NCBI GenBank assembly: GCA_947561395.2
Contig: OX387184.1
Span: 20,733,687-20,797,686, forward strand
Origin: Buxus sempervirens
Lineage: Eukaryota > Streptophyta > Magnoliopsida > Buxales > Buxaceae
DNA length: 64,000 nt
Direction: 5' to 3'
Made by a program: the position numbers and the translations under genes. Under the pieces are notes generated by a model, which did no database searches, was not told where the DNA came from, and saw only the letters and a program-made list of their open reading frames with translations. Shown piece after piece: positions 9,698 to 64,000 of this stretch. The stretch's first letter is position 1. The number at the start of each line of letters is the position of its first letter.

Positions 9698-9814
9698 CCC
9701 TTCCCGATAGTTCGAATCATTACGAATCTTTTCTCTATCGGCAGATGTTTTTTCTATTGTGCTTCGTCTTCCTCATATCTGCAAGCTTCCTCTGTCTTGT
9801 TTCTGATACTGATC

Positions 9815-38033: not shown

Positions 38034-38621
38034 GTACGAGCATAATAATCGCTAATGTTGCTCAAAATAGTTGCTTATTTATGGATTTCAAGGTTTTTAA
38101 AATTTATAATTTATTTCAGCTAAATCAATTGTTTGTTTCCTGTACCAGGCTCATAAGGTTATCTGCATATTCTATGTTTCATTTTCTATCTTTTTTAATC
38201 TTAAAAGAACGTGTTATGTTAGAAATATGGTATTGTGGAATTGGGTTGATCTGTTGTCTCACTTTCAAATTAAATAAAACATTTGGGCTTGTGATTCCCC
38301 TTATTCTTGTGTCTTGTGTGAATAATAGCAGGTAAATTTTTTTTTTTTAACCAGTGTAAGCTTATTACATATTGTGAAGATCTATTGTGAATAACAAGTC
38401 CTCTAGACTTTTCTCAGTTTATTAATCTGATCATTTGAGGTTATTTCTAATTCTCTTTATTGAAATGGAAGCTAATTTATGATTCATTCTATTCCTTTCT
38501 TTCTCTGTGGAGTTAATATATATGATTGGATCTTTTTTTTTTTTTTTGGTTCCATCTTTACATGTAGCTATAATTGCATCAAACTTCCTAGCCACATATG
38601 AAGCTCATTTTGGTAATTGTT

Positions 38622-42600: not shown

Positions 42601-43082
42601 AAAAAAAAAAAAAAGCCTTCGTACTTCAAGTGTGGCATGGCAGTTTCTGCCGGTTTGGAGGTGGTTCGGTACTGCTATCGCTGATCGTAATTTTTGGATC
42701 AGTTCACTTTCTATGCATCCTCAATCTGCACCCCCGCCGTGAACCCCTGCTGGATGGGCGCCGTGTGTCCACCAAAACTCATTTGCGCTAAATGAGGTTC
42801 CGACAGCCCGTGCGAACCGGGGAACGGACGACTCTTAACGGAACGTTAACAGTGGTTTTGTTTTCGACTCCCCTAAAAAAATCTCCCTCCAAAACTCATT
42901 TGCCAAGATTTCAAGATTTCATCCTTCCCTTCCCTCGAGCAGCAGAGGTTTCAAGATTTCAAGATTTACTTCTAATAGGAGGGCGTCTTGATAAACGCTC
43001 ATCTTCCGTTTGCTTTGATTGTTTTCTTTCTCCTCCCGTTCGATTCTTGCATTTTCTCGGCCCTATCTCTTTCTCTGCGAAA

Positions 43083-43175
43083 ATGAGAGAGTGCATTTCG
43101 ATTCACATCGGTCAGGCCGGTATCCAGGTCGGACATGCATGCTGGGAACTTTACTGCCTCGAGTATGGCATTCAG
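43083..43175 (+). pseudogene. Alpha-tubulin first exon, isolated
   Basis: ATG 43083 opens [20 protein letters not shown] then [11 protein letters not shown], ending exactly at a GTAATG splice donor (43176), the exon 1/intron 1 border of plant alpha-tubulin genes. Two residues differ from the near-invariant family sequence (His for Asn at 18, Tyr for His at 28). The second exon (PDGQMPSD...) is not found in the following 1.2 kb, so this is a promoter-plus-first-exon fragment. About 200 bases of C/T-rich upstream sequence could be the 5' leader (42880-43082). Confidence 0.85.
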
Positions 43176-44343
43176 GTAATGCTCTGTTGATCCGAACCGT
43201 TTCTTATCTTCTCTGTGTTTCTCTGCTTTTCTCCTTTACTTTGCATCATTTTTATTTTCGATCTTTTTGTTTTTTTCTCTGTTGATGTCCATTCATATCT
43301 GTATGCCGTGTTTTTTGTGAGATCTCGCTGGATCTAAGCTTTGATGCTTTTATTTGTTTTGATCTTCATAAGAGATGCTCTTGAAAAGGCATGATTTGCT
43401 GTAAAATGGATTGATCTTTCTAGATCGACATTCGACAGAGTTATGGATTTTCTCAAATGATTTTGTTAGATCTATGCGGATATGCATTTCCTTTTTTTTT
43501 TTTGTTTCACATCTATGGAGTTATAGGACTATTTCGCCTGAATTCCATGGAAACTGGATGAAATGGCAGTTATGTGCTGTTGGTGCAGATTCTGTTCTAA
43601 TTTCTGCATTAGATCTGCAAGATTCCTCAGATCTGTCTAAATTCTTCCCTATTCTTTTCGTCGAAATCCATGCAACTCCTTATGCATTTGGATTTATTCT
43701 TTTTATGTTTCACTCATTATTTTAATGTTAGTCTGCATCATATCTGCTAGAAGATTAGTCGTAATTTCACTAATTACATTTTATTTTCTCGATGTATGTT
43801 TCTAATTTACAAGTTGGCTTGAGCGTCACAATGCATCCTAATCTCTCATCACTCACTAAGCTAGATCAATTCTTATGCCCTTTTTTATTTTGATATTGTG
43901 GAGGATCATTTGGCTTTACAAATAAAATTTTCTATTTAATATATGTATTCATCTCTTATATTGCTTTCACTCTTCAAGATTTCATTTAAACATTCCAATG
44001 CGTTCAAATGAGATCTCTTCCATGAGAAGCGTTCAAGTAGCATTATTTCGAATTTTAGCCAGATAGATAGATCTCATTCGAACAAGTTCCTATAAAATCT
44101 GCTGGCCAGAGAGTGGAAGAGATGCAATTGTGGTTGAAACATCATGCTAATTAAGGCTGCAAACATCTAACGTTCTTAACATTACCCACTATTTGTTATT
44201 TTTAATTATAATTGTGCACACTAAAATCTACCTTTCCATCAGAGTTCCGCATTAATGGGTTTTTTTAATTTATCCACGTTTTTTTTTATTTTGTGGTCAA
44301 AAGTCGGTCGTTCAATGGTCCGTCCTTTTCTTCTTTGTTTTTT
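43176..44343. other. Tubulin intron remnant and AT-rich sequence
   Basis: T-rich, intron-like sequence follows the tubulin exon. No matching acceptor with tubulin exon 2 was seen. Confidence 0.5.
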
Positions 44344-44810: not shown

Positions 44811-47234
44811 CAAGTTTGCTTCGTCTCCAAGCCCGACGAACCCCCACGAACCCCGACCATTCTCATCTTCTTCTCCATAAGGGCGAAACCCTCTCCTTCC
44901 CCCATTCCTCTCTTCGACGAAACCCTCTCGTTTCGTGCATTGTTTTCCTCTCCTCTCTGTTTGCACACATTGAGGAATTCGTCGTTGGAGAGCCACCGCG
45001 GTTGAAGTTTGTTGCCGTCGACGACCTGCTGTTCGTCGCCGTAGGGAGTGCTGCCGTTGGCGACCAGGTAGCTGCCGAGTGCCTCCTTTGAATTTTATTT
45101 TGCGAAATTGAATTTAAATTTGCGCATTTGCATATTTGCACATATTTAAATGGTAATCTTCTTGTAGAAATGTCTTAAATTTCAATGATTCTGTTGTTTG
45201 CCTTAGCGAAATGTGCCCTTTCGAATTTGAATATGAGTTATTTGCATGTTTTTCGAATATTGGCTGTAGTAAATGTTTACACCATCGTTGTCCAACTATA
45301 GAAGCGAGCAAGCAGCTCCATTACACTGAAAAAAGTCCATGAATGATGTAGTGCTCTGAGTTGCGAATGTGTTCTGAAGCCATTAAATTTTTTGCTTCCA
45401 CTCTAGCAATGGCCTTGTATAACCATGCTTCTTTAGAAGTTCTTCCCAAATTCAATGAGTTTGTTGGCTCTACCGATGAGACTTCCAATACTTAACAGAT
45501 TGTTATTGGAGGTTTTTGATCTCTTCTATTTTAAACTGAAAAGCAAACAGCACCAAACAATAGTATCTTCGGATATCTCTTGTGCAGGCTATTCAGGGTT
45601 GCTTGAGATGCTGGTTTTTTCTCCTCATTTGGACCAAAAACTGAACTTTTGCTTTTGCTGTATCTTCTTCATATCCTGTGACAATTCAAATCAAAAGGAA
45701 TGAAAATTTCTCATCTTATAAGAGAGGCAAAGAGAGAGCAACCATAGTCTTTACAATTTAGTAAATAAAAGGTATATTTAACAGCCACATAACATTTTGA
45801 GTCCTCCTCTTCCCCCAATCAGGTCAGTTGCATAAGAAATATGGAACATGATAATAGGCTTTTGGAGTGTGTTGTGAGGCATTAAGAAATATGGAACATG
45901 ACCGACGCCTACCTAGTCCTTACTCCATACCAACAAAGCCTTCAATCATGCCTTCTTTTAAGGGTGAATGCTCCACTCCCCATGCAACCACCACAAATAC
46001 TTTCACTGTCGTCATAGATCACAACCATCATATTAGCCTCGTGTCAGGTAATGACCCATGACCTGGAACCTATCAGCTGCAGTAGATAAGACTTTATAAC
46101 CTTTGTGCCAAATCAAAGATCTGATGGTGATGATACCTTTGATAACAGATCCCTATTTCCAAAGGGGTAGTTTCACAAAGTGGCCTGAATTTAACATTGC
46201 CACCTTTGTGTTCTCAGGCTTAGACTCAGGACATCTTGATAGGAGACTGCACCTCAATTTTTGTAGTAGATATTGACCACAATATAATTAAGTAAATGTA
46301 AATACTTTTAGCACAAATAAGTGTATCTATTACCTCTGTTTTACCGTCTAATTTTTTGGTTAAATAAACATAAATAAACCCATTAAAGATAGAGAGAGGA
46401 ATTAAACCTTACTGCTACTGCCATGCCAAAATCAGTTATTTTCTGCATTGCACAGAGCATCAAGCCTTACTGCAAATGTTTATCAGCAGTAGATGCTGTT
46501 ATGCCCATCACCTCCTCCTCCTCATATCATTATTTTCTGCTGAATCTGAATCAAAACCCACCTCTCCTATCATCCAATCTCAATCTCCAAAACGAATTAA
46601 TAGATGTAATAAACCAAAAGATAACATTGAAAACAATGAAAACAAGAATATGGATCATAAGAAATCTGAATTGACAAGTTGCCCAATGACTAAAGACTTT
46701 CAACAAATATATATAACAAAGCAACCAACAAAAAGCAGCACAACCCTCCTTTAAAGCAAGAAGATGAACAGCATCAGGTCCAATGTTACCATCTATGGGG
46801 GTTAATGGTGTGGCTACATCAATTAATTTCCTTTGAATCACCTGAAAATTTCAATTACCAATACAGGCAACTTAAAATGAACAACCAGCCAATAAGTTGT
46901 TGCAGAAATAAATCTATCAAGCAATGAAAAATGCATAAAAGCAAACAAAGAAATGAAATAAAAGTTTTTTACAAGGAACAAACAACCAGATAAGAATTAA
47001 ACAAATACAGAGAATCATAGTGAAAAAGGCATAGCTTGCCAAATTTGATACCTAGTTCAGGCATTTTGTGGCCAGAAAACATGGCAGAAGAGACCCTTCA
47101 CCATCTGTAATTCAGGCATTTTCCATATGGAATGGATGTAACTTAAAGGCCTATTAAACAGGAATGAGGCAAGGTGGCATCTTGTATTAAAGTTTAAAAT
47201 CATATTTTGTGTGTGAATGTTATGTGCCTTAGGC
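44811..47234. other. Long stretch without a supported gene
   Basis: A GC-rich leader-like region up to 45090, then AT-rich DNA. AAGAAATATGGAACATGA occurs twice (45834 and 45885). Upstream coding exons of the protease gene at 47235 were looked for and not recognised. Confidence 0.5.
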
Positions 47235-49922
47235 ATGGATTTTGCACGGGATCAGGAGCGGGCGGCAGATGATGTGACTCACGTGCCGACAGATATAGAT
47301 CCGGTAAGGCAAGCCATTGCATTATTTCTTTTATTTTACACATTCTTCTATACATCTCCTTTCATCAATATGTTTTCATTGTCGTAGGTATTACGAAGTC
47401 ACATTGTTCGTATGATCGGCTTTGCCCGTGACTTCACACGGCATTGTACCGACTTTGCTGGCTCTTTACGCCACTCCCATCGACATCCACCACCGCCAGA
47501 TGCTGAGCCTGACTGGCGTTGTACTGATGATGTGGCTCCTCCACCACCTCCAGATGCGGAGCCCGACTGGCCTTGTAATGATGATGTGCCTCCTCCACCA
47601 CCTCCAGATGGCGATGGCACTGTTGATGCACACGCAGAGTTTTCATCACCTCCTTTTGCTGGAAGTGTGCCAACTGATGAACCCGCAAGTACATCTGAGG
47701 GTCCAAGTACGATGCAATCTTGTCCCAGAGGTAGGGGGAAGCGAGTAAAGCACCTTGTACATAAATTGAGGTCACCCTTTGTCGAGACGCATAGATTCCC
47801 CCCATTACCTGAACGAGAGACAAAAGCGTGGATGTATGCCATGACACCAGGGTTTTCGCCGATGTAAGTATATATCTTCTGTAATTGAGAGTAATTAACA
47901 GATTTACACCATTCAATATTGTGTTTATAGTTGGTTGTTGTTTTTTTTTTTTCCCTTATAAGTGGAATTGACGCATGCAGGGAAAAACTTGTTGATTTCG
48001 GTGATTGCTTTGCGACTCGATTCGATCTACTTGGTCTTTTTCCACGACGAAGGGTTAGCGACCTGGTAAGTTATTTGTATCGAAAAGTGTATCATTTGTT
48101 TTAGGTTACAATGGTACTTGGATTAGTTTTCTCACTCAGGTGATTGTGGAATAGGTTATGCACATGTATGTGCTTGCTCGTGTCAAATCTACGCGGGAAC
48201 ATGCATCAACTATCCGTCGTCATTACATTACACCCTACACATCTGTACGTATATAGGATTGTATGTTAGGACGCTTAGAATAATTAATTATCAATGCATA
48301 TGGAGTACTACAGCGGACTAATATATTGTACTTGTGGTTTACAGGCTGCAATCCTAAAAGGAACAGTGACTGTAGAAGATGCTGTACGAAGTCAATTTTC
48401 ACGAGATGTTGTAGGATGTAGTTTGCTTCGATGTCATATGGTATGATAAATTTCGAATATTTTATTACTCTCATTTACATAATTATTAACGCCTAGTACA
48501 CCTTGTATTGTCATTTGATAGGCTTTCCTACCGATCTTGAGGAGGAACCATTGGTTCTTGGTTGTTTTGAACATCAAGGACCAACGGATCGAAGTGTTAG
48601 ATTCGGTACCGAAGAGTCGGCCTGGTGATTACCGTGCTGTATCAACGAAATTGGTATGTAAAAAGCTATATAGTTTCAATGTATTATATAAATTGATATT
48701 GAATGGTTCAATTTTCATTGCAGACAACTTTTTTTTCAAAAGTCTTTGAGGAGCTTAAACGTGGCTGTGACAAGAGAGTGCAGGAGTGGTCAGTGGTGCC
48801 TGTGTCTGTGCCCTGTCAAAGTACTTCGTAAGTTCCCAATTTTATCACTCATATGTTACCTTAAATTACATGACCATTATAGAGATATTGGATAATGCCC
48901 TTAGGTTGCTTATTTGCTTATTTCCAAATAAGCAACCTGTGGAGCTCAAAGATGGTGTAGATGGGAAGATGGAGAGACGATGTAAACTTAGTGAGATTAT
49001 ACAGTTGTATATTAGGATGGTTTAGTTATTTTGCGTGGATGTATAAATTGTATTTATCAGGTGGTCATTTGTGTTTGAGGGCTTAGCCCATACTCCTATT
49101 TACAGGCGTTATATAGCCGTTTTTCTGAAAAAAATTTAAGAGGTTATTTTGTGTGTTTGGTTAGTTCTGAAGTTGGTTTTCATTACTTTGGGCCCTAAGC
49201 TAGCGCCCAGGAGCCAATATAAACCTGATATGGGTCGACCTGGTTCCGGTGTGCCACATTCTTTTAGTCGTTGAGATTGAAACTCAAATATTATAGGTAT
49301 ATCATTGGGTATTATGATATAAATAATTCCAATTATTAAAATTCTTTAGCAAGATACGTATTGGTGGAGTCTAATTTATTTTGATTTTATTTGTAATTCC
49401 AATTATTAAAATTATTTTAGCTAGATTCATTGGGTATTATCATCTGAATAATGGTGATATTTATTGAAGAATAAATCTTGAAATGAAATTAAAAGTATCC
49501 TCGGTGTTGCAATAATATTACATGCTTAAAATACAGTGGGAAAAAACATGAAATCATTATTGTTCGATCATGAATAATTACTACATTGAATTATAGCTTT
49601 ACCTTACCCCCAATAACACCTGTACTTTCTAGTTATTTGCCATGTCTACCTTCTCTTGATCTTTTCCATTTGTTGTGTAGTGACGATTGTGGTGTATTCG
49701 TAATGAAGTACATGGAATATTGGGATGGGCATCAATTGTCGACTAGGTTTGGGCAGGCAAGTATATATTTTCCTATGCAACATGATGTGGTTAAGACTTA
49801 CAGAATTTTTTTTAGCAAGTGTTTCATTTAAATTGTAACAGGAAAATATTGGACACTTTCGGCATGAATTGTTAGCATACCTGTTGCTCCACCCTGCAAA
49901 CACAATCAAGTTCCCGTTCTAA
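47235..49922 (+). CDS. Ulp1/C48 SUMO-type cysteine protease of a MULE, nine exons, frame intact
   Basis: Exons: 47235-47303, 47388-47863, 47981-48065, 48155-48244, 48345-48440, 48522-48653, 48724-48827, 49681-49756, 49842-49922. All borders are GT-AG except one GC donor (49757), and phases agree throughout, giving 402 residues. Residues 45-100 are Pro-rich with two DAEPDW repeats; 165-272 is a helical linker; the C48 peptidase domain covers about 250-402. The whole catalytic set is visible: His282 (NHWFLVVL), Asp299 (IEVLDSVP), Gln348 (VPCQ) and Cys354 (DDCGVFVMKYMEYW). Ulp1 proteins cleave SUMO-like conjugates; MULEs of the Kaonashi kind carry such genes (known). The start is the first in-frame ATG after an AG; it may be an internal exon of a formerly longer gene, since it resembles exon 6 of the gene at 58849-60597. 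Confidence 0.8.
48903..48938. repeat. Short perfect hairpin in protease intron 7
   Basis: AGGTTGCTTATTTG and its exact inversion CAAATAAGCAACCT are separated by 8 bases. A possible remnant of a tiny fold-back insertion. Confidence 0.8.
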
Positions 49923-50127
49923 TTGAGATGCTTAAACCTTCCTGAGAATGTGGATGCGTACGAATTTCGACCTTCTTGAGTTGCATTCTTTCTAAAGTCT
50001 CTTAATTTTGTGACCTTCTAATTTTTGTTTACTTTTGTATTAGATTATGAAAATTCCAGGAATTTAGTAGAAGCGATTTATATTCTTCTTTTTGAAATGC
50101 CTTTTCTGCTGTTCCTATTGCTGTCAG

Positions 50128-50346
50128 AGTGTTGTATCAGAAGATCCTCACTTTCATAGTATTATGAGCATACTGTCTGTAGTTGGACTCGTGGTATGTC
50201 TAGTTATGTGAAATTTTCTGAAGTCTTGTTAGTTTTTTTCTGTCAATGATTTGTAACCTTATTTTTACATAACTTTTATCTTTCAGGCTTTTGTAATAGC
50301 ATAGTCGTTGGGAATGGGACCCATTCCGTGGATTATATTGTCTGAG
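50128..50346 (+). pseudogene. ERD6-like sugar transporter, two-exon fragment
   Basis: Exon 50128-50193 (AG before, GTATG after) encodes SVVSEDPHFHSIMSILSVVG then LV. Exon 50287-50346 encodes AFVIA, then SLGMGPIPWIILSE and a GTATGC donor. The GMGPIPWIILSE block is the conserved cytoplasmic-loop motif of monosaccharide/ERD6-like carriers of the MFS. The second exon has an in-frame TAG after AFVIA where the family has Phe or Gly, so the copy is dead. The remaining exons are absent. It lies 200 bases after the protease stop codon on the same strand and looks like captured cargo. Confidence 0.75.
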
Positions 50347-51074
50347 GTATGCATAGTTTATTTAAATTGTTTACCACATCAATATAAGGAAAAATCCCTA
50401 TTGTCAATCTATTTTCACTTCAAGTCATTTGTCTTAGCACCAATGATGCTGATGCTAGTTTCGTCCTTCTTTTACGTGTCCTTCACGATGTCTCTTCGTC
50501 TTCTTACAACTTTGTTTTGTGTATGCAAGCAAGCGTGGATCTATCCAGTACGGGTAATTGAGATGCTTAAACGTTCATGATAATGTGGATGCGTACTTTT
50601 TTCCCTCAATATTAGTGATTTTAGCTGTACATTATCAACTTTTGGTTCAGTCACGTGAAAGATCCTGCCATTACTTAAATCATGTGTATGGAATGGATTT
50701 TTCTTCCTCACGTTCGAAATATCTGAAGCCCTTCTTAAGTATATTGTGAAATATTCAGAGATCTTTTGAGTTGAGGCAGTTCAATTTTGTCAAATATTGT
50801 TTCGACTTGTAAAATTTAAATCGACTTCTTCATTGTTTTCTCCATGTCATATGTTAACATCACACTAGCTTCATGATAACATGATTATTTACGTTTCTCT
50901 GTTTTTGTTCTTTCCTGTTGTTTTATTGTGCCTCTACTCATGTCAAATCTGTAATGATTCTTCAGGCTTTTCTGAAAGTTTGGTTTATTTTAGTTCTTAT
51001 GGATGGCAAAAGGAAGAGGAAAACAATTGTTTTCAGCAGATTATAATATTGCCTGTTGATCTGTTTCCAATTAG

Positions 51075-51795
51075 GCTTTGTGACGAAGCTACGAGTGCTC
51101 TAGACAGTACAACAGAAGCAGAGATATTAAGTGCACTGAAATCCCTAGCGAATAATAGGACATCCATATTCATTGCTCATAGGCTTACAACTGCTATGCA
51201 GTGTGATGACGTGAGCATTTCTTGCTGGGGGAACTGGTTATAAATGTATTTGTGTGTTTTTTTTTCTTTTCTGATGGTTCTCGCTTTTGACTTATCTGAG
51301 TAGATTGATAACTGGGTGTAGAGAAAGCTAGACTAGACTAACCACCATCTGCATATTATCTTCCTTGTTACTGATTCTGCAGGGAATTGGTGTTCCTTTT
51401 TTTTTTTTTCTGTGGTTGGGTTTGGTGGTGGGGGTGTGTGGTTGAATTTTTTGCTTTTTTGGTGGTGGGGTGGTGTTTTGTGTTTGGTGGGGGGGAGGAG
51501 GGCGGTGTTGGTGGTGCTGCAGCGGCAATGGTTGTGGGTTGGCTTCTTGTGTGTGGGTGTGTACAGATATGATTTCTTTTCAATTGGCTTATCTTGTTCG
51601 TTGTTTACTTTATTTTCCATTTTTTATTTATTTATTTTTTTCCAGGTTATTGTTCTAGAGAATGGGAAGGTGCATGAACAGGGGCCACATGAAGTTTTAT
51701 TATCAAATTCAGGAAGATATGCACAGCTATGGGGACAGCAAAATAATCCTATTGGCGGGGTTGATTCAAACGTCAGAGTTGAAGCAAGAGTGTGA
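51075..51795 (+). pseudogene. ABCB25/ATM-type mitochondrial ABC transporter, last two exons
   Basis: Exon 51075-51210 encodes LCDEATSALDSTTEAEILSA, LKSLANNRTSIFIAHRLTTA and MQCDD; it includes the Walker B aspartate-glutamate, the D-loop (SALD) and the H-loop histidine (IAHRL). Exon 51646-51795 encodes VIVLENGKVHEQGPHEVLLS and GRYAQLWGQQNN, ending at TGA 51793-51795. This is the C-terminus of the ABCB23-25 (ATM) half-transporters that export a sulfur compound from mitochondria for cytosolic Fe-S assembly (known). The frame is open, but Walker A, signature and membrane domain exons are missing, so it cannot work alone. The intron contains a G/T-rich low-complexity tract (51410-51550). Confidence 0.85.
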
Positions 51796-51825
51796 GAAGA
51801 GCACACACCGAAACCCTATAAAAAG

Positions 51826-51895
51826 CAGGAAGATATACACAGCTCTGGAGACAGCATAATGACCTTATCGATGGTGCTGATTCCAATGGCAGAAA
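51826..51895 (+). repeat. Diverged tandem copy of the ABC transporter exon tail
   Basis: AGGAAGATATACACAGCTCT at 51829 and the following 45 bases match 51711-51775 (AGGAAGATATGCACAGCTAT...) at about 75 percent by eye. The copy lies 30 bases after the stop codon. Confidence 0.75.
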
Positions 51896-52382
51896 AATAA
51901 TCCTATTAACAAATTTGATGAATTGTCAACGAGCATGGTCTTATATTTTCTGAAAGGTTTCTTCATAGCAAAATTGTAATCATTATGTAAATTCTAAAGA
52001 AAATGGATACTCTTCACATCCCTCAAAATTTAACTGCTTAGAGCCGAGGACTGAAAAACAGGTCGGCATGCTGCTGTGATGGCTGATTAGTAAGAGAATG
52101 GGTTGTCCAATTACGCGGAGGTCAGATCAGTATTCGTTCCTTGTTATCTTCGTGAACAGCTGGAGAAAAAAAAAACGTGGGTGGTATTAACAGAAGGTGG
52201 TTAAAATTTGAGTTTGGTAAGGCTGTAAACGAGCTCGGCTCAGGCTCTTAGACCTTGGGTTCAGGCTATTTGAAAAGTTGAAGTTTGATAAAAATTCTTG
52301 GGCTCAGGATATTTGAACTTTTACTTTGTTTAGATTTATGTGAAGGGGATATGATCCAGTCCCGTGGTCCCGCCTATCGTTA

Positions 52383-53925
52383 GCTCGAGTCCCATGTAAA
52401 ATAATTCGAGTCCCTTGTAACATTGCTCGAGTCCTACATATACTTAGCTCGAGTCCCATGTAAAATAACTCGAGTCCCATGTAATTAGCTACGGCACTCA
52501 CGTATACTAAGCTCGAGTCCCATGTAAAATTGCCCGAGTCCTACATATACTTAGCTCGAGTCCCATGTAAAATAACTCGAGTCCCATGTAAACCACGTCG
52601 AGTCGTCTCCCGTATACGTAGCTCGAGTCCCATGTAAAACTGCTCGAGTCCTACATATACTTAGCTCGAGTCCGATGTAAATTTGCTCGAGTCCCATGTA
52701 AAATTGCCCGAGTCCTACATATACTTAGCTCGAGTCCGATGTAAATTTGCTCGAGTCCCATGTAAAATAGCTCGAGTCCGATGTAAATTTGCTCGAGTCC
52801 CATGTATCCAACTGCTCGTGTCCGATGTAAAATAGATCGAGTCCCATGTAAATTTGCTCGAGTCCCATGTATACTTAGCTCGAGTCCAATATAAATTTGC
52901 TCGAGTCCCATGTATACTTAGCTCGAGTCCGATGTATATTTGCTCGAGTCCCATGTATACTTAGCTCGTGTCCGGTGTAAAATAGCTCGAGTCCCATGTA
53001 AATTTGCTCGAGTCCCATGTATACTTAGTTCGAGTCCAATGTAAATTTGCTCGAGTCCCATGTATACTTAGCTCGAGTCCGATGTATATTTGCTCGAGTC
53101 CCATGTATACTTAGCTCGTGTCCAGTGTAAAATAGCTCGAGTCCCATGTAAATTTGCTCGAGTCCCATGCATGGTATACAGCTCGTGTCCGGTGTAAAAT
53201 AGCTCGATTCCCATGTAAATTTGCTCGAGTCCCATGTCCATGTATACTTAGCTTGAGTCCAATGTATACTTGCTCGAGTCCCATGTATACTTAGCTCGAG
53301 TCCGATGTAAATTTGCTCGAGTCCCATGTATACTTAGCTCGAGTCCAATGTAAATTTGCTCGAGTCCCATGTATACTTAGCTCGAGTCCGATGTATATTT
53401 GCTCGAGTCCCATGTATACTTAGCTCGTGTCCGGTGTAAAATAGCTCGAGTCCCATGTAAATTTGCTCGAGTCCCATGTATACTTAGCTCGTGTCCGGTG
53501 TAAAATAGCTCGATTCCCATGTAAATTTGCTCGAGTCCCATGTATACTTAGCTCGAGTCCAATGTATACTTGCTCGAGTCCCATGTATACTTAGCTCGAG
53601 TCCGATGTATATTTGCTCGAGTCCCATGTATACTTAGCTCGTGTCCGGTGTAAAATAGCTCGAGTCCCATGTAAAATTGCTCGAGTCCCATGTAAATTTG
53701 CTCGAGTCCCACGTATACTTACCTCGAGTCCCATGTAAAATAACTCGAGTCCCATGTACAATTTGCTCGAGTCCCACGTATACTTACCTCGAGTCCCATG
53801 TAAAATTTGCTCGAGTCCCATGTAAATTTGCTCGAGTCCCACGTATACTTAGCTCGAGTCCCATGTAAAATTGCTTGAGCCCCACATATACTTAGCTCGC
53901 GTCCCATGTAAAATTGCTCGAGTCC
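52383..53925. repeat. Minisatellite, about 1.54 kb, 21-24 bp units
   Basis: Roughly 65 to 70 units share the core CTCGAGTCCCATGTA and alternate in their tails (AATTTG, AAATAG, AAATTG, TACTTAG). Variant cores CCGATG, CCAATG and CCGGTG occur in a fixed order that recurs, for example 52980-53130 against 53285-53450, so there is a higher-order period of several units. Divergence rises at both edges (CCTACATATAC forms at 52430-52740; CCCACGTATAC forms after 53705). It ends about 150 bases before the TATA box of the GRF gene. Open frames here (GTRANLHGTRA-type peptides) are repeat artefacts. Confidence 0.95.
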
Positions 53926-54074
53926 CTCCTACTAAAAGTCCTATGTTGGTGTCCTTGAGTCGTATGTCAAGTACGGTCGAGTCCTTAGTAAATAGGTCAA
54001 GTGCCCTCATATTTTGCGTGCTCGCATCTACTAATACAACCAACGTGTTTCACGTGGGCCTGCCTTCCGGCTCG

Positions 54075-54084
54075 TTTATAAATA
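54075..54084 (+). promoter_or_regulatory. TATA box of the GRF gene
   Basis: TTTATAAATA, 51 bases before the ATG at 54135, between the minisatellite and the gene. Confidence 0.6.
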
Positions 54085-54134
54085 CAAGTGTGTCAAGCGA
54101 GTCACTTATGCGCTACCCTTTGTGCGAAGGAAGA

Positions 54135-54806
54135 ATGGAAGTTTCGGCAAAGGCTACCGATCCCCACGCTCGTGTCCCATGTCCATGCGGGAAAGGGATG
54201 CTTAAAAGGAAACTCTCCCACACCTCACGTAATCTAGGGCGCTTTTTTTTCACTTGTCCATCGTCTGTAAGTATGCATTTTTACCAATCTGGCCATTCAA
54301 CTATTATAAGACTGTCTAAATTAAATGCATTATTTCTTACAGGGCAATGGTGGGAATGGATGTGGGTATTTTGTTTGGTGCGATGAGTTATTACTGTGTG
54401 AATGTGGGAGGGGACCATGCCGTGTGTTAACCGCAAAAACTCCAACAAACAAAGGGAGAAGATTTTACCGATGTCCTTTTGAAGTATGTGTGGAGTTGTT
54501 TAGCACTCAAATACGTTCCTCCCACACGAGATATTTTTCACAATGGGGACTTCCTAATTGATTTTCATGTCATTGTATTTCCAGGGCGAACAAAGCTGCC
54601 ATTTCTTCTCCTGGTTGAATGAAGTTGGGGTAGAAAAGGGTGAATCGTCGAATTCATGCGATGCAGAAAACACTGAACAAATACAGCCAAGGGCATGGGA
54701 AGTAGAACGACGGCTATTGCAGGAGGAGCGTGATCATGCGAGAAGGATGTCCGACATATACCGTGAGTTGCTTCACGACATTGACAAAGTTAAACTGGAC
54801 GAATGA
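54135..54806 (+). CDS. GRF-type zinc finger protein, two fingers, three exons
   Basis: Exons 54135-54266, 54343-54483 and 54585-54806, all with GT-AG borders and phase 0, give 164 residues. Finger 1 runs from about residue 14 to 59 (CPCGKGMLKRKL, GRFFFTCP, then CGYFVWCDE); finger 2 from about 64 to 103 (CECGRGPCRVL, GRRFYRCP, then CHFFSWLNE). Both fit the CxC...C...CxxFxW pattern of zf-GRF domains, which bind nucleic acid in other proteins (known). Residues 126-164 form a charged coiled-coil (WEVERRLLQEERDHARRMSD). Both introns cut their finger at the same place, after the TCPSS or RCPFE block. Small plant proteins of this shape are often transposon-linked (recollection). No break is seen. 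Confidence 0.82.
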
Positions 54807-57228
54807 ATTGGTTAACCGGTGATGGAGATGCATGTTTGGTGTGGTTGTCGTTGAGTTTTGGTTACAAAATGCTACTAAATGTAGTTTTATTTGGTTTGAC
54901 AAAATGCTAGTAACTATTGTGTAATATGTAACTGAAGACCATGTATGAGAACCTAAAAGTAGTTTTATTTCCATTTTCATGGAAAAGGAACATTATGTTT
55001 GATACAATGTTCACATTCGCTAATGATACAAAGGAAAAGAACTTACATCATATAGTGCCCAGAAAATAAGAATGAAGGAAATAGTGAAAATGGAGACCTC
55101 AATCACTCTTCATTGGTTAACTGCAAATTGTGAAAACGTTACCCCTGTATAAGTCCACCACTGTATGGCCCACAAATACGCATTGTGACTTCCATTTGAT
55201 TAATCAACTCCGTTGCTTTTACCTGTATCGCAATTGAAGCTCCCATTCAGAAATGCAGCAGGTACCACCCAAAAAGAAAAACAAAGAAACGCCCTTTCTT
55301 TTACTATCTTAGGATCTCACAATCTCAATACATAACACAATTTTCCAAACAACAAACAAAGGATTTATCTTCTCCAACAAAATTTCTGGGTTTATCTAAT
55401 GACTCAGACAGCTGGATAAAATCTTTAATCAATTCATTGGCCGGACCGTGGTTCCAAAGACTGTGAAGTAACCTATTAAATCACACAGCTAGATACAGGC
55501 ATTTGAATCTTGTATCTAGATAATGGAAGATACATGCATTTAAATCTCATAGCTAGATACAGGCATTTAAAGCACACTTGGGAGATACAGACATTTAAAG
55601 CACACAACTCTGTACATTTTCTTATTGCAAAAATCCATAGCTGTTGACTGGAGAACTCCACGTACGACAAATGTGTACATTTGATTGAATGTTTCAGAAA
55701 CGTAAATATTAAAAGGGGGAAAAAGTACAAGGTACCCACAAGGGTTGAGCAAACAGAGTAAAAAACAAAACAACAAAAAAGTACAAAAACCCTTGGGAAG
55801 AAAAACCAAAACCCAACAAAAATTACTCCATAAATGCAACAGATGACCAATTGCAAAACACTTATTGTGATAAAGGTGTTGCTTTAAATATCTTGTTGTG
55901 GCAGCTTGACGAAACGTAGCTGTTAGGTGGACTTGTAAAGCACTGGCTCATTAAATTTGGGAGACATCCCAGATTCCATATGACTAAAGAAATCCAATAT
56001 TTATAATTGCAGTTCCCACCATGTGGCACCTTTAGATACCTCGATCAACCTGCAAGTTCAAGGTCCCACATTTCATAAAAAGATTTAATGCCTCTCAAAC
56101 ATGGAATTTATTGATATTTAAACAATCTACAATTCCATAGAAATAATACAAGATTTGAGCCTTAAAAGGCACATTTTTTGGGGTTTTGGTTTAAGGTCTA
56201 TAAGAGACTAAACTATTTGAACTACATGAAAAATATAATGTGCATTAATCTGCTGTTAATACAGATAAGCCTGCATCTTTTATACCCATGTAACCATGCA
56301 TTAAATAAAGAAGATTTAATAGACTTACTAAACCATTTTTAATGTAAGCATGGAAATATGAAAATGCATCTGCTACTTAGCCAGCTCAGAAATTTGGGCC
56401 TTCTATTTCAATTTTCAAATAAAATTTAAAAAAAAAAAAAAAAAATTTGGTGTTTGGCACACTACACTTGCTTGCACCATTTTCCATCTGTTAAGTATGC
56501 ATACTTAGTATCTTCTTTGATATGCACCACTCAAGAGTTCAGACAGTTATCAGTTTCAAATATTTTCAAATGCATGGTATACAGAAGCCTTATCATCTTC
56601 ACCAACAAATTGTAGCAGGGCTTCATAAAAGCCTCCCAAAGGGGGAACTACCAAACTCAATTTAATGGTTGCTCAATGAGAAAACCAGGATCACAAGGGT
56701 ATTATAGCCACCATTCTGATCTCATTGGATATAATGATTATCTAAAGGCTGAAGTCTGGGCTTGGCGTGGGCAGGGAAGGGAGATGTAATTGAATTTTTT
56801 CATATCCAAGATTATATTCAATTGCAGATGCAGCCAGTTGACATTTCATACTGAAATGAAACAAACCATGAAGAAAGCACTGGAAATGGAGAGTACGGTT
56901 TAACCAAACATGAGTTTCCACAATATCCGATAGTTAAATAATGATACAAAGCCATAATTGTAATTCTGGCATTAGTTCTTCTAGTGTTAGTAAGAGTTTC
57001 CTGTAACATAATTAGCATAGGGTTTTTTTCTTTTTTAGTAAAAACAAAGTACACATCCATCTCCAGAAATACCGATCATAGTGGGACACCTTTCTCTTGA
57101 AAGAGGAAAATTAAGAAGGGAAAGGGAACAGAGCTTTCACTAATAACACCAGAAGTCAGTTTCTAAAAACCAAACTGCTTGGCCATTGAGTTATTTGAAC
57201 TATAAGCTACCTGCATTCATAAATCTCA
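54807..57228. other. Intergenic or 3' flank of the bZIP exons, no gene seen
   Basis: Near 55485-55610 a motif AGCTAGATACAGGCATTTAAA recurs three to four times in diverged form. A run of 19 A lies near 56427. Nothing else is supported over these 2.4 kb. Confidence 0.5.
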
Positions 57229-58051
57229 TTAGATTGCATCTATGTTAGCTGTTGTTTGGGGATCAGCATCTGGGTGACCATTACTCTCATCTTCTACTGA
57301 GTTCTGTCCTTGATACTTCTGAAGCTTCTCCTACATATGTATGATAGAAAGCATCAAGTTACAAATAAATCCACCAAAAGAGTAGCAAAATATGAAAGAT
57401 CAGACATCAGAAAAATATGGAATATTAAGACAGTAGCCCTATATGGAATCAGTATCATGCTTGGGGGAAAAAACTAATATATCAGAACCATATGCAAAAC
57501 TTACAGTTAAAGAGGTGTTCTCTGATGCCAATTTCTCACATTCCTCTTTTATACGCCCCAGTTCATCTCTGAGGGAAGTGTTCTCCTCTTTTAGTGTTTC
57601 CACTCGACGAGCAAGTTCCTCACACTCAGCCTAATGACATTTGAGTGATCAATACTAATAGAAGGACCGAAAGAGGATGTTGCACGTGGGCGCGGGGGGG
57701 TTGGGGGGTGTGGTAGCAGGTAATTAAATCGATTACATAGGTAACTATATAAATTTTCCATGCATTTGCTAGATTGCATATGGACAGATCAAGTAGGTGA
57801 GAAAGTGTGTCAACTTACATAAGTGCCCTCATATTACATAAAACACATGACTAATTGGCATATTGCAATTGAGGGCATTCATGGAATCAGCATAGATGCT
57901 ACCAGAGAACAACTAATATAAGTTATTAATCTTCTTGTCTATGAGTAAGTAAAAATCCAAAAACATCTCTAACCTGCTTTCTAAGCCTCGAACGTCGTGC
58001 TGATTCCCTGTTAGACTGCTTTCTTCTTTGCCTCGTAAGCTCCCTTTCATC
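57229..58051 (-). pseudogene. G-box bZIP factor (GBF type), last three exons
   Basis: Minus-strand exons 57974-58051 (basic region, DERELTRQRRKQSNRESARR then SRLRKQ), 57505-57630 (zipper: [40 protein letters not shown]) and 57229-57330 (C-terminus ending ADPQTTANIDAI, stop TAA 57229-57231). Splice sites and phases are intact. The basic region has the NxxxARRSR signature and the heptad leucines of group G bZIPs, which bind CACGTG boxes. Upstream exons with the Pro-rich activation region are not recognised in 58052-58848, where the transposon gene begins, so I treat it as a truncated or captured 3' part. It could be the end of a real gene whose 5' part was displaced by the MULE. Confidence 0.75.
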
Positions 58052-58848
58052 CTGTAAACAAATAATTGGGTGATTCAACAAAAGGTGAATGAAAGGACTC
58101 CATTGAAGGATCTCATGTACCAGTACCTGCAAAGAGATAGTAGCCCCGGAGGTAGCACCAATATCATATCAAAATAATAAGCCTCCGAAGGCTGGGAACA
58201 AGAACCTAACATTATCTGTAATTAGTCCTTGCAGAGGGAACAAACACACACTGAATTTAGGTTTCCCCAATTGGTGTTCAATACCTTTTTTGGAAAAGGA
58301 CAACAAGATAAAAGGAAGCATCATGGACCTCTTTATTCAATTTCAAGGTGGTGGATAAATATATTAAATATCATCGATAATTCCATCCATGTAACAGCTG
58401 TGGCCTTCTTAGTTTCCTTCTGTGAAGTGTGAACCCATAAATTAAAAGAGCGCCCATCACAATACATATACAATATCTCATGAAAAGGAATCTCAGTTTT
58501 AATGTGCAAGACATCTCAAGTACTTAAAGAAAGAATTACAAATGTAAAAAAAAACTTGCTCATTGGTATTATGACGTAGGAAGGGGGGAAAAAAACAAAA
58601 ATATAATAGTATACGAAACATTCACTTGGGAGCACCATGCTACCTGCAGCCTTTACTCCCAAATGATAACTTGATGGAGATTTCACGAAGCCAGTCTTCT
58701 TCCTCAGTTTGCAGATGGACCTGCATTCACAGACACAAACCCAAACTTAAGTAACTATCAAGAACAAAGACGAAACGAAACCAATTTTGAATGACAAGAA
58801 CAGTAAGCACATGTTAAGTATTTATACAATTCTACTACAATCTCGTAT
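58052..58848. other. Region between bZIP exons and the HMG gene
   Basis: Minus-strand exon-like bits occur (VHLQTEEEDWLREISIKLSF near 58640-58720 followed by a GT; GATSGATISLQ near 58130) but I cannot assign them. The first could be a further exon of either neighbour. Confidence 0.35.
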
Positions 58849-60597
58849 CTACAAGACTTGGTTCTCGGAACCAGGTCTAGTGCGGAACATACCATCTTGC
58901 CTACCCATTTGGGATGCATAAGCGATAGCCATCTTATACTCGTCCTGCATCATGCGCAACGATGCACGCATGCCATCCAACGCTTGTTGGGATGCCTAAC
59001 AACAAAGTATTCATAATTTAGAACATTCTAAAACATGTCAACAACACCGACGACCAACGTAGGGGGTGACAAGTCTTACCGGATCAATCCCTGGAATAGG
59101 TCCTTCATCAACATCTCCAACTCCTTCCTCAGCACGCACCGTCAGTGCCACCACCTGCATCGACTACACTATATTAATAGTCCATCCACAATAGACCATG
59201 TAGAATATGAAGGGGCATAGAAAATGATGTTTTACCTCCCCATTGCCATACCCGCCTGCTGATTTCTCAGCCTTCTCCCGTGACTTCACACGATCGTCGT
59301 CCCACCACCCCAGACGTGGCGTTGGACGACTTGATTCAATATCACCAACACGTACAACTTCATAGTAGAAAAGCTGAAACATTAATAAAATTTGGGAAGT
59401 CATGGTGTATTCAGCATATACTTGTCATCTTGAACTAATACAACCAAAAACAAATCAGAGACGAAATTACCTGTAAAAATAGGAGGCATCCACCAATGTT
59501 GGTTTTTTTTTTCTCCCGATATTTCACAATTTCATCAAACAGAACATCAAGTACAAAAGCAGCCCAATTGTACTGCCCAACCCTACTAATATTAGCTACG
59601 GCATGCAGAAAATGAAGCTTCACGTGTGGGTTCGAACCCGGGCATAACAAACATCCCACAAGAAATAGTACAAATGCCTGTTGAAAGGCATGGCCGGAAC
59701 CTAGAGTGGCCAATCTGGACTCTATATCGTTTAGTGCTATGCCATGCCTATCAAAAGTAAAGCTTGCCCGAAGCTGGGCAAGCTGCTCAATGGGACCATC
59801 TATGACAACCTTGGGCCCTTCGCTCCTAAGGCCCAAGATGGTACTTACAGCGGCGGGGGTAATGGGGACAACCGAGGATCCAATCCTCAAACTACGACTA
59901 TGTACATCGATGTGGTCTACTAACCAGGCGCAAAGCTTCACACATAGGGATGTGCAGCGCATCTGGAGAAGAGAACCAAATCCTATCTCAACAACTACAC
60001 GTCGCTGGTCCTCGTCAAGCAAAGTCACGAAATGCACAAATCGCTTTGGGGAGCATCTTGTTCCCAGAGACGCCTACACTTACATAAACATGTGTTAGTA
60101 TAACGCAACTACATACAAAACATTCATAATGTTCAAGAAATGAAGTTATACCTTTCCTCTTATTTTTCCTGTTGGAGTCGGGGCCGCTTCCAACCACTCT
60201 GTCATTCGTTGATTGTATAAATCTTTATACTTCTGCTTCGCACCAGCATCCATCGCTTTCCATAGGCCTTGCGCCTCCTGCGTGATCTACAAAATAGTAA
60301 TGCAACTGTATTTATTACAATTGACACTGTAAACATTATCAACTAATATATAGCACTTTAACCAACTCACCGTCGTGACATTTATGGAAGACCTACTCTT
60401 CCGAATTGTTTCAAGGTACTCATTTCTGTAAGAAGTAAGTATAACATTAGAAATCCACTTAGTTCGGATTTGGACAGTAAAACAACAATGCTTTAATTGT
60501 TTATACTTCATCACCTGAATATGAGGAAGGCATTCACAGGACGCGATGGGCCACTAGAAGAACTACCCGACGCGACATCCTTCTTCTTCTTACCCAT
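58849..60597 (-). CDS. HMG-box-like plus plant-mobile-like domain protein of a MULE, seven exons
   Basis: Exons from 5' to 3': 60515-60597, 60371-60425, 60152-60286, 59471-60073, 59236-59373, 59080-59154, 58849-58995. All have GT-AG borders and consistent phases, giving 411 residues from ATG 60597 to TAG 58849-58851. Residues 19-80 look like an HMG box (RPVNAFLIFRNEYLETIRKS, then LWKAMDAGAKQKYKDLYNQR). Residues 100-338 match the N-terminal plant-mobile-like domain that precedes Ulp1 domains in MULE proteins (CVKLCAWLVDHIDVHSRSLR, PITPAAVSTILGLRSEG, QQAFVLFLVGCLLCPGSN, NWAAFVLDVLFDEIVKY, GGCLLFLQLFYYEVV). Residues 364-411 are helical (MRASLRMMQDEYKMAIAY). The usual Ulp1 domain is missing; a Ulp1 gene lies separately at 47235. 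The gene starts 463 bases downstream of the transposase stop codon on the same strand. The function is unknown; DNA binding is inferred. Confidence 0.78.
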
Positions 60598-61059
60598 TAT
60601 TGAGCTGCAACTAAAATAATATAACGCACATATACTAAAACCAAGGAAGGTTAGTAGTAATTACATACCAGGTAAGATTACAAACACAAACAGTCAAAGT
60701 AAGGCAACATTACAACTACCCAAAGTCATAATAAACACAAAAACATGTTTCACAATGCAACTAATAAACCACCAATGTTGGTAGTAAAATATGTTTCACA
60801 ACCAACATGTTTCACAATGTTACGGCACCCACGACTAAGTGGCAAACCAGTTCTTCATAAAACAGTAATAAAAATAAGGTTTCGTGGGGTTGTTGATCAA
60901 TTGTTGCCACATTTCACGACACCCAGCAAAACACATCACGCCAACCTGCAAATTAGACGTCGGTAAGTCAAAGATAATTACAGGCTACAGCAAGAACTTA
61001 GATGCATGAATAGATGTAAGATGGACTACAACAACCTGCACATTATACCATGCCAGTCT
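60598..61059. other. Spacer between transposase and HMG gene
   Basis: No gene. Repeated ATGTTTCACAA words at 60745, 60790 and 60808. It should hold the 3' end of the transposase transcript and the promoter of the HMG gene. Confidence 0.5.
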
Positions 61060-63349
61060 CTATATTGAAGCTCTGCAACTTGCTCGGTTGTGTCCAACAC
61101 CCTTGCATCTGGAACAATGAACCTGTCGCTTGTCTTGGAATTGTGATTCAATGCGCTTCTGCTTAGGGCGCCCTGGACGTCTTGCTGTCTTTGGTGGGAA
61201 CGAGATAGATGGGGTTTCACTTGAATCTTCTATGGAAACCACGTCGATGTCCTCAACCATGGGGAAGTCATGTGTTGGCACAGCATGCATCAATTCGTCG
61301 TATATCAACCCTTGCGTTGCCTTGTGGTAGCATAGGTCGACAAAGTCATATACATTGAGCCTTACCAAGTTCAAGACGGCACATGCGTGTGCACAAGGAA
61401 TGCCCACCATCTGCCACTGTTTGCACGTACACTCACGACGGATTAAATGCACCATGATATATATCTCATCACCTCTAACTTCATATTCATGTTGCCCACA
61501 TTGAATGACACTCAGCCCCAATGCCCTAGTGAGATTCTCCTGAATCTTGGCATCAATTCGACCACCAACATTGGACACCCACGTGTCAATACACCTCCGC
61601 TTCCTCATCAATAGCTCTGTAAGCTTCACTCGATGTGCATCAATAAACCGCATTACAGGCAATTTCCTTTCTTCTACCATCCAAGCATTGAATGATTCCG
61701 CTAAATTTGAATTCAGCTTATCCCACCGTTTCATAGGGAACAATGAATTGGCCCAATGTTCGGGCCCATTCCTCCTCACCCAATCAGCTAAGTCAGGTGC
61801 ATATTCATGCATGGCAGCCAATGCCTTATCGTAGTCCCGAGGGAGCCTTGCGTAAGCAATATCATCAAGTAACCGTAAGGCAAATTTCTTTCCCTCCCTC
61901 AAATGAAAGGATCCAACGAATTTACTAAAGTTTTCCTTCAGATGTCGAAGACAATGAGAGTGGCTCCTAGCGCCAAAGGTAGCACTTACTGCAGTTATAA
62001 TGCTTTGATTCCTGTCACTTACAATGACTAAATCCTCTCTGAAGGCTATGGATGACTTAAGAAGTTGTAGAAACCACATCCAATCCTCATTATTCTCAGC
62101 ACTAACAATTGCAAAGGCAACTGGAAACATGCCGTCATCAGCATCGAGGGCTGTAGCAGAAAGCAACGTGCCCTGGTATGGCCCACTGAGATGACTTCCA
62201 TCAATGAACAACAGTGGTCTGCAACCGATCGCAAATCCCCTCAAGGAACATCCATAAGCAATAAACAATTGCTTAAATTTTCCATCTTCACTTGCTGCCC
62301 AACTTGCCACTGTGCCAGGATTACTCTCTTGCAGCCGTTCACACATCCATGGGATGAACTTATAAGACTCCTCCACATTACCATCTATCCTCTGTTTCGC
62401 CTTTTCCTTGCTCCTCCAACATTGCTGATATGTCAATGGCATTGCATGATCATGATAAAAGTCTTTGCCAATTTGTCGTGGCAAGTAGCTTGGAGTGTTC
62501 CTAATTGTCCTCTCAATCACACCAGAAAGGAACTTCGTTCTCACAACCGGTTTCATAGACAATTGCTCTTGGGCTGAGTGGCTATGCTCCTTCACAAACT
62601 TCATCACCCTCATAAAACTCGTATCCCTCACACGTCTTGCCGTTACCTTCCAAGGACAATCCGTGCCTGCACAACGGACACTAATGTATGCTGGAGAATT
62701 TTTTTTCATCACATATTCAAACCTATTGGCAATAGCATGCTTGTACACTGCTTCTCTAAACTCCTTAGGGCTCTTAAATATCTGGTCGACCTCAGTAATT
62801 GCATCCTGCCACAGGCTAGATACAAGGGGACCTCTGCTGACTTCAGTGCAACTTTCAAGAAGCGGAGTCTCCCGATCCTCTACTTCATCGTCATTGCACG
62901 GAAGTACAGAGTGACCACTTAAAGGTACACTCGTCCTGAAATTACACAATATATGACTATCATTACATGTAATATGGAGGAAACATAATCCCATGTACGG
63001 TTAATGAATATTACCTCCGACAAGTGTCTCTTTCTTGTGATGATCCTTCATCATTATAGACATAAATGTTGGCCCAACCCTCGTTGTAGCGAAATAGGTA
63101 CGATAACGCATCTTGATCAGAGAGTGCCAGTAGAACGCTCTTGTCAAACTTCACCGAGTACTTCATACTTACACTCACCGGGGATATATTCAATAACCGA
63201 CAAACAGCTTCAACGACCTCAGTATAATTCATGTTGCTATTTAGATCGACACCCTTACTACTTCCCCCACTATACCCCATTGACCCATCTTCCTTGGTGA
63301 TTACTTGTCCTCCAATGTGACAAAAACAGAATAGAATCTCATCTGACAT
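61060..63349 (-). CDS. MULE transposase (MURA type), 736 residues, two exons, intact
   Basis: Exon 1 is 63015-63349 (ATG 63349, MSDEILFCFCHIGG) and exon 2 is 61060-62935, joined across a short GT-AG intron. Residues 1-105 resemble the PB1-like domain of many MULE proteins; 160-235 is the DNA-binding MuDR region (IFKSPKEFREAVYKHAIANR, GTDCPWKVTA, EHSHSAQ); 350-530 is the DDE catalytic domain with Asp357 (LLFIDGSHL), Asp419 (VIVSDRNQS) and Glu525 (NSNLAESFNAW); 613-632 is a SWIM finger (CTCKQWQMVGIPCAHA); 719-732 is a CCHC knuckle (CSRCKGVGHNRASC). The length is normal for autonomous MULE transposases. An ATG further upstream (63394) is in frame, but it precedes an AG and adds a non-conserved stretch. 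No stop or frameshift is seen. A domesticated MUSTANG-type gene is the alternative, less likely given the knuckle and the neighbours. Confidence 0.88.
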
Positions 63350-64000
63350 TGTGCACTGTCCAGCGAATTGAAATATTAAATTCTTCATATTCAAATATAA
63401 TGGAAAAAATATATTTTGAAATATTACAACATACTAAAATAAATATGACTCACAAGACAAGAATACATAGGCAGATCAGGTATGTCAGTCAATTTCCCTC
63501 AAATCCCCTCAAATTAATTGAAGACAGATGTTGGGGAAGACTTTAGACTTAAAAAAATTGTAAATAAAAAATAGAGGTTGTAGAGTTAAATTATAATTCT
63601 ATTTCCCTAGTAGGAGGTTTTCACTTCAAAACAACTACCAGAAATAGAAACAAGAGAAAAAGAGACCAATTAAATGCAACATACTGCATTTAAACTGGAT
63701 CACCAACACCTATTACATTTTAATGGCTTAAGCAAATGAAATGCGGAATGTTTCTCTCAAAAAATCAATGGTAAACAAAACTTAATCCACAAACAATAAA
63801 ATAACTGCAAGAAAGTGGGTTACAACTTATTTTTAATGCATATTAGGTGACTGCAAGTAGCGTTTCAACAAAACTAATGACGTTGATTAAATTTCCAATA
63901 ATAAGGATTTTCATGCTTCAATAAAAGAACTACTGGACCTTGAGGGAAAAGAATTTCAGAGGGCCTCACATTGCCTTTAGCACCCTATAACCAATAAACC
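63350..64000. other. Upstream of the transposase, no gene seen
   Basis: AT-rich sequence. I looked for a MULE terminal inverted repeat matching 44344 or another internal block and found none; the element may extend beyond the window. Confidence 0.5.

What the first reader, a model, noticed from the sequence alone, without database searches (positions are those of the whole stretch)
58849..60597. HMG-box-like domain joined to a plant-mobile-like domain in an intact transposon gene
Seven exons with correct borders and phases keep a 411-codon frame open. The first 80 residues look like an HMG box and the rest like the N-terminal half of MULE-borne Ulp1 proteins. A DNA-bending domain on such a protein could serve integration, end recognition or targeting. 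I do not know of a described HMG-plus-mobile-domain MULE gene.
Basis: partly seen in the sequence, partly recalled or inferred. Interest (0 to 1): 0.75.

Follow-up and report, generated by a model that had tools for sequence, protein, structure and literature searches.

The report
HMG-box plant-mobile-domain gene beside transposase
A jumping gene in a plant genome appears to carry, next to an open transposase gene, a second open gene that joins a DNA-bending HMG box to a 'plant mobile domain', a pairing I could not find described and that may help the element bind DNA or resist being silenced.

Summary
On the minus strand, 60597 to 58849, seven exons and six GT-AG introns give an open 411-codon frame. 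Pfam finds an HMG box (residues 17-80, E 7e-12) and a plant mobile domain, PMD (163-323, E 1.6e-12), both above curated cut-offs. The HMG match spans two introns; retaining intron 1, 2 or 3 gives an early stop. Exons are 17 points richer in G+C than introns. Upstream on the same strand is an open 736-aa MuDR-type transposase. PMD genes in MULEs are well known (PMC6446971, PMC5418596); an HMG box on one was not found in my ten searches of an open-licence library, and plant HMG-box proteins are described in four other architectures (PMC12786108). Best reading, inferred: a MULE accessory protein whose HMG box brings the PMD to element chromatin, most likely to oppose silencing, less likely to help transposition. 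Not shown: transcripts, element ends, relatives, function; a PMD-only product from an internal ATG is not excluded.

The parts
60515..60597 (-). Exon 1 of the HMG-PMD gene: ATG, lysine-rich start (GKKKK), first part of the HMG box (RPVNAFLIF)
   Evidence: an acceptor-like TGCAG lies just upstream of the ATG, so a 5' UTR intron is possible
60371..60425 (-). Exon 2: middle of the HMG box
60152..60286 (-). Exon 3: end of the HMG box and linker
   Evidence: retaining intron 3 would give a 92-aa HMG-only protein
59471..60073 (-). Exon 4: most of the PMD match, 201 codons open. The acceptor's TAG is an in-frame stop directly before it; the first in-frame ATG is its codon 38 (protein residue 129), still upstream of the Pfam PMD match
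59236..59373 (-). Exon 5: end of the PMD match and downstream region
59080..59154 (-). Exon 6
58849..58995 (-). Exon 7 and stop codon; by eye a GTATGT donor-like site lies shortly before the end
63015..63349 (-). MURA transposase exon 1 (PB1-like by eye and recall; no Pfam match above cut-off)
61060..62935 (-). MURA transposase exon 2: DBD_Tnp_Mut, MULE, SWIM and Transposase_mut above cut-off; C-terminal zinc finger below cut-off
47388..49828 (+). Ulp1-type protease region on the opposite strand; Peptidase_C48 above cut-off over 27 residues only, in X-joined frame pieces; membership in the same element unproven
   Evidence: the three single frames of this region given matched no family

Best explanation
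The gene is an accessory gene of a MuDR-type Mutator-like element (MULE) in a flowering plant. It encodes a protein with a short lysine-rich start, one HMG box and one plant mobile domain (PMD). Shown: the open spliced frame, the two domains, and an open transposase gene next to it on the same strand. Inferred: the protein enters the nucleus; the HMG box binds and bends DNA at the element and so brings the PMD there; the PMD then interferes with host silencing of the element, either by competing with the host PMD proteins MAIN/MAIL1 and their partner PP7L or by playing a role like that of the VANC anti-silencing proteins of VANDAL elements. The result would be transposase expression and mobility.
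For: HMG_box and PMD above Pfam cut-offs in one open frame across six introns. Open MURA of 736 aa with DBD, MULE and SWIM domains above cut-off; 462 bp separate its stop from the HMG-PMD ATG. Passages read: PMD is listed for several plant MULE clades, and PMD and/or a DUF for half of the VANDAL members (PMC6446971); MAIL1/MAIN act in silencing and the authors speculate that MULE-captured PMD serves anti-silencing (PMC5418596; similar in PMC8616336); VANC proteins, with DUF1985 and DUF287, are sequence-specific anti-silencing factors (PMC5735166).
Against: DUF1985, a VANC domain, scores only 12.2 bits against 35.1, in the 199-aa PMD piece alone, and is not listed for the whole protein, so this is not shown to be a VANC. 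No match to one recalled VANC21 motif in 58061-64000. Element ends were not found, so the pair is linked by adjacency only. No expression data, no second copy, no relative. The HMG box may have little sequence specificity, and nothing here ties it to element DNA.
Confidence: 0.4

Rival explanations
1. Transposition cofactor. The HMG box bends the element's ends or the target DNA and helps the transposase form its complex or integrate, a job like that reported for maize mudrB.
For: DNA-bending domain beside an open MURA. A passage in PMC6446971 says mudrB is apparently required for integration and that mutB of the yeast element Mutyl has a DNA-binding role and lies in the transposase's orientation. 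That HMGB1 helps other recombinases is recalled.
Against: The passages read give PMD no role in transposition chemistry. Element ends unknown.
Confidence: 0.23
2. Recent chance capture. HMG-box exons of a host gene were transduplicated into a PMD gene of the element and have no function yet; the frame is open because the event is young.
For: MULEs often capture gene fragments (PMC13317346, passages); the neighbourhood has other partial genes.
Against: Three HMG exons are joined in phase with the PMD, and the neighbouring MURA is open. The box is divergent from solved HMG boxes (best E 7.2e-7), but this is weak evidence because no plant donor could be searched.
Confidence: 0.19
3. Remnant of a longer HMG-PMD-Ulp1 gene. 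The Ulp1 half was separated by an inversion and now lies on the other strand at 47.4-49.8 kb; the 411-aa product is a truncated form.
For: PMD and Ulp1-type regions lie in one neighbourhood on opposite strands, as an inversion of about 47.4-58.8 kb would give.
Against: ULP sequences in either orientation to the transposase are reported in MULEs (PMC2528002, passages). A bZIP exon and, by eye, an ABC-transporter end lie between. Two different elements are equally possible.
Confidence: 0.1
4. Wrong gene model. HMG exons and PMD exons belong to two products: an HMG-only protein of 92 aa ending in intron 3, and a PMD protein from an internal start.
For: Retaining intron 3 gives a stop one codon past exon 3. 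Exon 4 has an in-frame ATG at its codon 38, upstream of the Pfam PMD match. Odds raised from 0.05 to 0.08 when I noticed this on rechecking.
Against: Exon 4 is open from its acceptor onwards, in phase with exon 3, and 37 codons before that ATG are free of stops; the G+C contrast fits the whole exon mask.
Confidence: 0.08

Closest known systems
MULE-borne plant mobile domain genes (MUDR, MDR, MUDRAVI2, VANDAL, MULE-Monocots clades; table in PMC6446971)
   Same: PMD gene carried with a MURA-type transposase in a plant
   Different: An HMG box precedes the PMD; 'HMG' occurs 0 times in that paper's main text. The PMD gene here has the same orientation as MURA, whereas for most of the MUDR clade it is listed as antisense
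Transposase-PMD-C fusion proteins of MULEs in grasses and Amborella (PMC5418596, passages)
   Same: PMD joined to another domain in a MULE
   Different: There PMD is fused to the transposase; here a stop ends MURA before the HMG-PMD gene, and PMD is fused to an HMG box
VANC anti-silencing proteins of VANDAL elements (DUF1985, DUF287)
   Same: Accessory MULE gene; proposed role
   Different: DUF1985 below cut-off; 'HMG' occurs 0 times in the two VANC papers
KAONASHI / ULP-containing MULEs
   Same: MULE accessory gene; an Ulp1-type region lies in the neighbourhood
   Different: No Ulp1 domain found in the HMG-PMD protein
Plant HMG-box proteins (HMGB, 3xHMG-box, ARID-HMG, SSRP1)
   Same: HMG box
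   Different: None of the four described architectures (PMC12786108, passages) has a PMD; the box here has Asn in RPxNAF, as in BBX, where HMGB1 box B has Ser. Plant HMG boxes themselves were not compared

Membership tests
HMG-box proteins (PF00505) | Score above Pfam gathering cut-off over most of the domain | tested here: met
   46.1 and 49.8 bits vs 25.4; profile 1-64 of 69
HMG-box proteins (PF00505) | L-shaped three-helix fold | not tested
Plant mobile domain (PF10536) | Score above Pfam gathering cut-off | tested here: met
   47.7 bits vs 34.9; profile 44-218 of 347, so partial coverage
VANC (DUF1985) anti-silencing proteins | DUF1985 above cut-off | tested here: not met
   12.2 bits vs 35.1, E 0.19, in the 199-aa PMD piece; not listed for the 411 aa. 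DUF287 not listed either
VANC (DUF1985) anti-silencing proteins | Causes loss of methylation at its own element | not testable with these tools
   needs plants and bisulphite sequencing
MuDR-type MULE | Transposase with MULE catalytic domain, Mut DNA-binding domain and SWIM finger | tested here: met
   61.1, 60.0 and 29.0 bits vs 27.6, 25 and 19.6
MuDR-type MULE | Terminal inverted repeats and about 9-bp target-site duplication enclosing the genes | tested here: inconclusive
   No inverted repeat between 46000-58860 and 63380-64000 above shuffles; the 5' end may lie past base 64000, and MULEs without TIRs are reported (PMC2528002)
ULP-MULE accessory protein (KAONASHI type) | Ulp1 (C48) domain in the same protein | tested here: not met
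   Not listed for the 411 aa at E up to 10; C48 matched only in joined pieces from 47.4-49.8 kb on the other strand

The most novel reading that the evidence does not exclude
A class of plant MULEs carries its own HMG-box chromatin-targeting factor: the HMG box, with the Asn that I recall as typical of SOX/TCF/MATA-type boxes, supplies sequence- or structure-guided binding, and the PMD counters the host MAIN/MAIL1/PP7L silencing pathway. This would be an anti-silencing system distinct from VANC.
Probability: 0.25. Interest if true: 0.78.

Novelty: new variant of a known kind. Interest (0 to 1): 0.52.

Why it matters
The PMD occurs in many plant transposons and has host relatives needed for silencing, yet its function is described as unknown (PMC8616336, PMC5418596, passages). 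A natural fusion to a well-understood DNA-binding and bending domain is a Rosetta-stone clue that the PMD works at DNA or chromatin, and it gives a testable protein. If the fusion is conserved, it would add an architecture for HMG boxes in plants and a new kind of MULE accessory gene.

Tried and rejected
Whole-genome search for the window: no genome held. Relatives: the search for related loci in viral contigs for exon 4, the MURA frame and the HMG part (1, 0 and 22 stretches matched a pattern, none a relative) and tblastn of the 411 aa in plasmids (no match). By their descriptions these collections are not of plants, so this says nothing about how common the fusion is. The genome-contig scan and the phages collection were not used.

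Element ends: local alignment of 58050-58860, 55000-58860 and 46000-58860 with the reverse complement of 63380-64000 scored 22, 25 and 30; the maxima of 200, 100 and 40 letter shuffles were 32, 33 and 34. The repeat finder over 46000-64000 listed 12 inverted pairs of 25-36 nt, 71-85% complementary; I took none as a TIR.

AlphaFold2 of exon 4 alone: mean pLDDT 43.3, pTM 0.29; uninformative, so no fold search was run. PDB sequence search with 311 residues holding the PMD: one match at E 2, taken as chance.

VANC21 motif (recalled form YAGTATTAY): no match on either strand in 58061-64000; weak evidence, since motifs differ between families.

HMG subtype: in the alignments the box has Asn in RPxNAF like BBX (HMGB1 box B: Ser), and Val further on where HMGB1 box B has Ile and BBX has Asn. 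The rule linking these residues to specific or non-specific binding is recalled, so I call the subtype mixed.

Literature: PMC1702500 (Babu 2006) not held. 'HMG box' with 'plant mobile domain': 0 papers. 'HMG' occurs once each in PMC8616336, PMC13317346 and PMC12477816, each time in the reference list. Of every paper cited I saw passages found by term, not the whole text. Subscription papers and protein databases were not searched.

Changed on rechecking: an in-frame ATG at codon 38 of exon 4 was noticed, so the wrong-model rival went from 0.05 to 0.08, the best explanation from 0.42 to 0.40 and chance capture from 0.20 to 0.19.

Full report
What is there. The window has 40.5% G+C and reads as plant DNA by its genes (MURA, PMD, bZIP, tubulin-like). 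On the minus strand from 60597 to 58849, seven exons of 83, 55, 135, 603, 138, 75 and 147 bp are joined by six introns of 78-97 bp, all GT..AG, into a 411-codon frame (last exon counted to the stop at 58849).

Is it more than chance. Three lines agree. First, Pfam: HMG_box at E 7e-12 (residues 17-80, profile 1-64 of 69) and PMD at E 1.6e-12 (163-323), both above curated cut-offs. The HMG match spans 64 residues against 64 profile positions although two introns (after codons 27.7 and 46) interrupt it; the lengths agree with correct junctions, but the residue alignment to Pfam was not printed. Second, keeping intron 1, 2 or 3 introduces an early stop, and exon 4 is open for 201 codons in one frame against 16 and 14 stops in the other two. 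Introns 4-6 were not tested this way in a separate step, though the read-through printed shows stops in introns 5 and 6 and none in the stretch kept from intron 4. Third, exon G+C is 0.488 and intron G+C 0.318; 3 of 1748 circular shifts and 0 of 1749 placements of the reversed mask do as well.

HMG box. phmmer with the first 91 residues against PDB sequences lists 45 distinct sequences at E up to 10. By their names, and by recall for some, they are HMG-box proteins; the best are BBX at 7.2e-7 and HMGB1 at 2.1e-6. The motif is RPVNAF, with Asn as in BBX (RPMNAF), while HMGB1 box B has Ser (RPPSAF); further on it has Val where HMGB1 box B has Ile and BBX has Asn (alignments). By a rule I recall, the first residue is typical of sequence-specific boxes and the second of non-specific ones, so the class is mixed. 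No fold test was made.

PMD. The match covers profile positions 44-218 of 347. DUF1985, a VANC domain, scores 12.2 bits against 35.1 in the 199-aa PMD piece and is not listed for the whole protein. A PDB sequence search gave one match, at E 2. AlphaFold2 on exon 4 alone failed (mean pLDDT 43.3). The other PMD frames of the window, 9659-11228 (+), are near or above the PMD cut-off. Outside the gene itself, tblastn of this protein in the window found nothing better than E 0.5, so no second copy is present.

One product or two. Exon 4 begins right after an in-frame TAG, which is its acceptor, and stays open; its first in-frame ATG is codon 38 (protein residue 129), still upstream of the Pfam match. 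So the fused model is favoured by phase and continuity, but an HMG-only product (92 aa with intron 3 retained) together with a PMD-only product from the internal ATG is not excluded without RNA.

The neighbour. A two-exon transposase gene, 63349-63015 and 62935-61060 on the same strand, encodes 736 aa without a stop, with DBD_Tnp_Mut (60.0 bits), MULE (61.1) and SWIM (29.0) above cut-offs. Its stop lies 462 bp before the ATG of the HMG-PMD gene. An acceptor-like TGCAG directly before that ATG allows a 5' UTR intron; this is not shown.

Element limits. No terminal inverted repeat rose above shuffled controls. The 5' end may lie past base 64000. On the 3' side a bZIP exon (frame 57926-58168, minus; 28.3 bits vs 27.6) lies about 0.7 kb away, so the left end is probably between about 58.1 and 58.85 kb; this is inference. 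An Ulp1-type region lies at 47.4-49.8 kb on the plus strand: Peptidase_C48 scores 28.9 bits vs 20.7 on X-joined pieces, over 27 residues, while three single frames from there match nothing. Whether it belongs to the same element, was split off by an inversion, or comes from another element cannot be told.

What is known. From passages read: PMD is listed for many plant MULE clades, often antisense to the transposase (PMC6446971); PMD-C occurs as fusions with MULE transposases in grasses and Amborella, and the authors speculate about anti-silencing (PMC5418596); genic PMDs can be fused to protease, kinase or phosphatase domains (PMC7156037); VANC proteins are sequence-specific anti-silencers (PMC5735166); ULP sequences occur in MULEs in both orientations (PMC2528002); plant HMGB proteins fall in four architectures (PMC12786108). 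None of these passages names an HMG-PMD gene, and the search for both terms returned 0 papers. The library holds open-licence papers only, and protein databases, where such a fusion may be listed without comment, were not available; so novelty is provisional.

How it likely works. Shown: the open frame, the two domains, the open neighbour. Inferred: nuclear entry, perhaps helped by the KKKK start; binding and bending of DNA by the HMG box; recruitment of the PMD to element chromatin; interference there with host silencing. I give this 0.40. A transposition cofactor gets 0.23, chance capture 0.19, a truncated HMG-PMD-Ulp1 remnant 0.10, and a wrong gene model 0.08.

Verdict. The finding is real at sequence level, and the reading as a domain fusion is supported. 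It is a new variant of a known kind (a MULE accessory PMD gene) with an added DNA-binding domain. Interest 0.52: a specialist would be moderately surprised, and the fusion offers a handle on the unknown role of the PMD, but it rests on one copy without transcripts or relatives.

Noticed in passing
47388-49828 (+): Ulp1-type protease region on the strand opposite to the transposase: C48 match over 27 residues in joined pieces; HWFLVVL..VLDS and DDCGVF motifs by eye.
   Followed up: partly
57926-58168 (-): bZIP exon (PF00170, 28.3 vs 27.6 bits) of a gene that looks G-box-factor-like by eye, just downstream of the HMG-PMD gene; by eye further 3' exons follow towards 57240. No upstream exons identified: a gene broken by the element, or a captured fragment.
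   Followed up: partly
50869-51792 (+): By eye, the C-terminal end of an ABC transporter (DEATSALDSTTEAEI...) without upstream exons seen; Pfam gave no ABC match to these frames.
   Followed up: no
52367-53927: Long minisatellite array (self-matches 76-86% identical), running into a frame with a GRF zinc-finger match below cut-off (22.8 vs 25.9 bits) at 53853-54383 (+).
   Followed up: no
9659-11228 (+): Second plant mobile domain in two overlapping frames, just below the cut-off in one (34.5 vs 34.9 bits) and above it in the other (49.7); possibly retroelement-borne.
   Followed up: partly
38592-39062 and 42792-43187 (+): Partial host-like genes: an AMP-binding enzyme piece (30.9 vs 29.9 bits) and a tubulin N-terminal piece (24.4 vs 33, below cut-off).
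   Followed up: no
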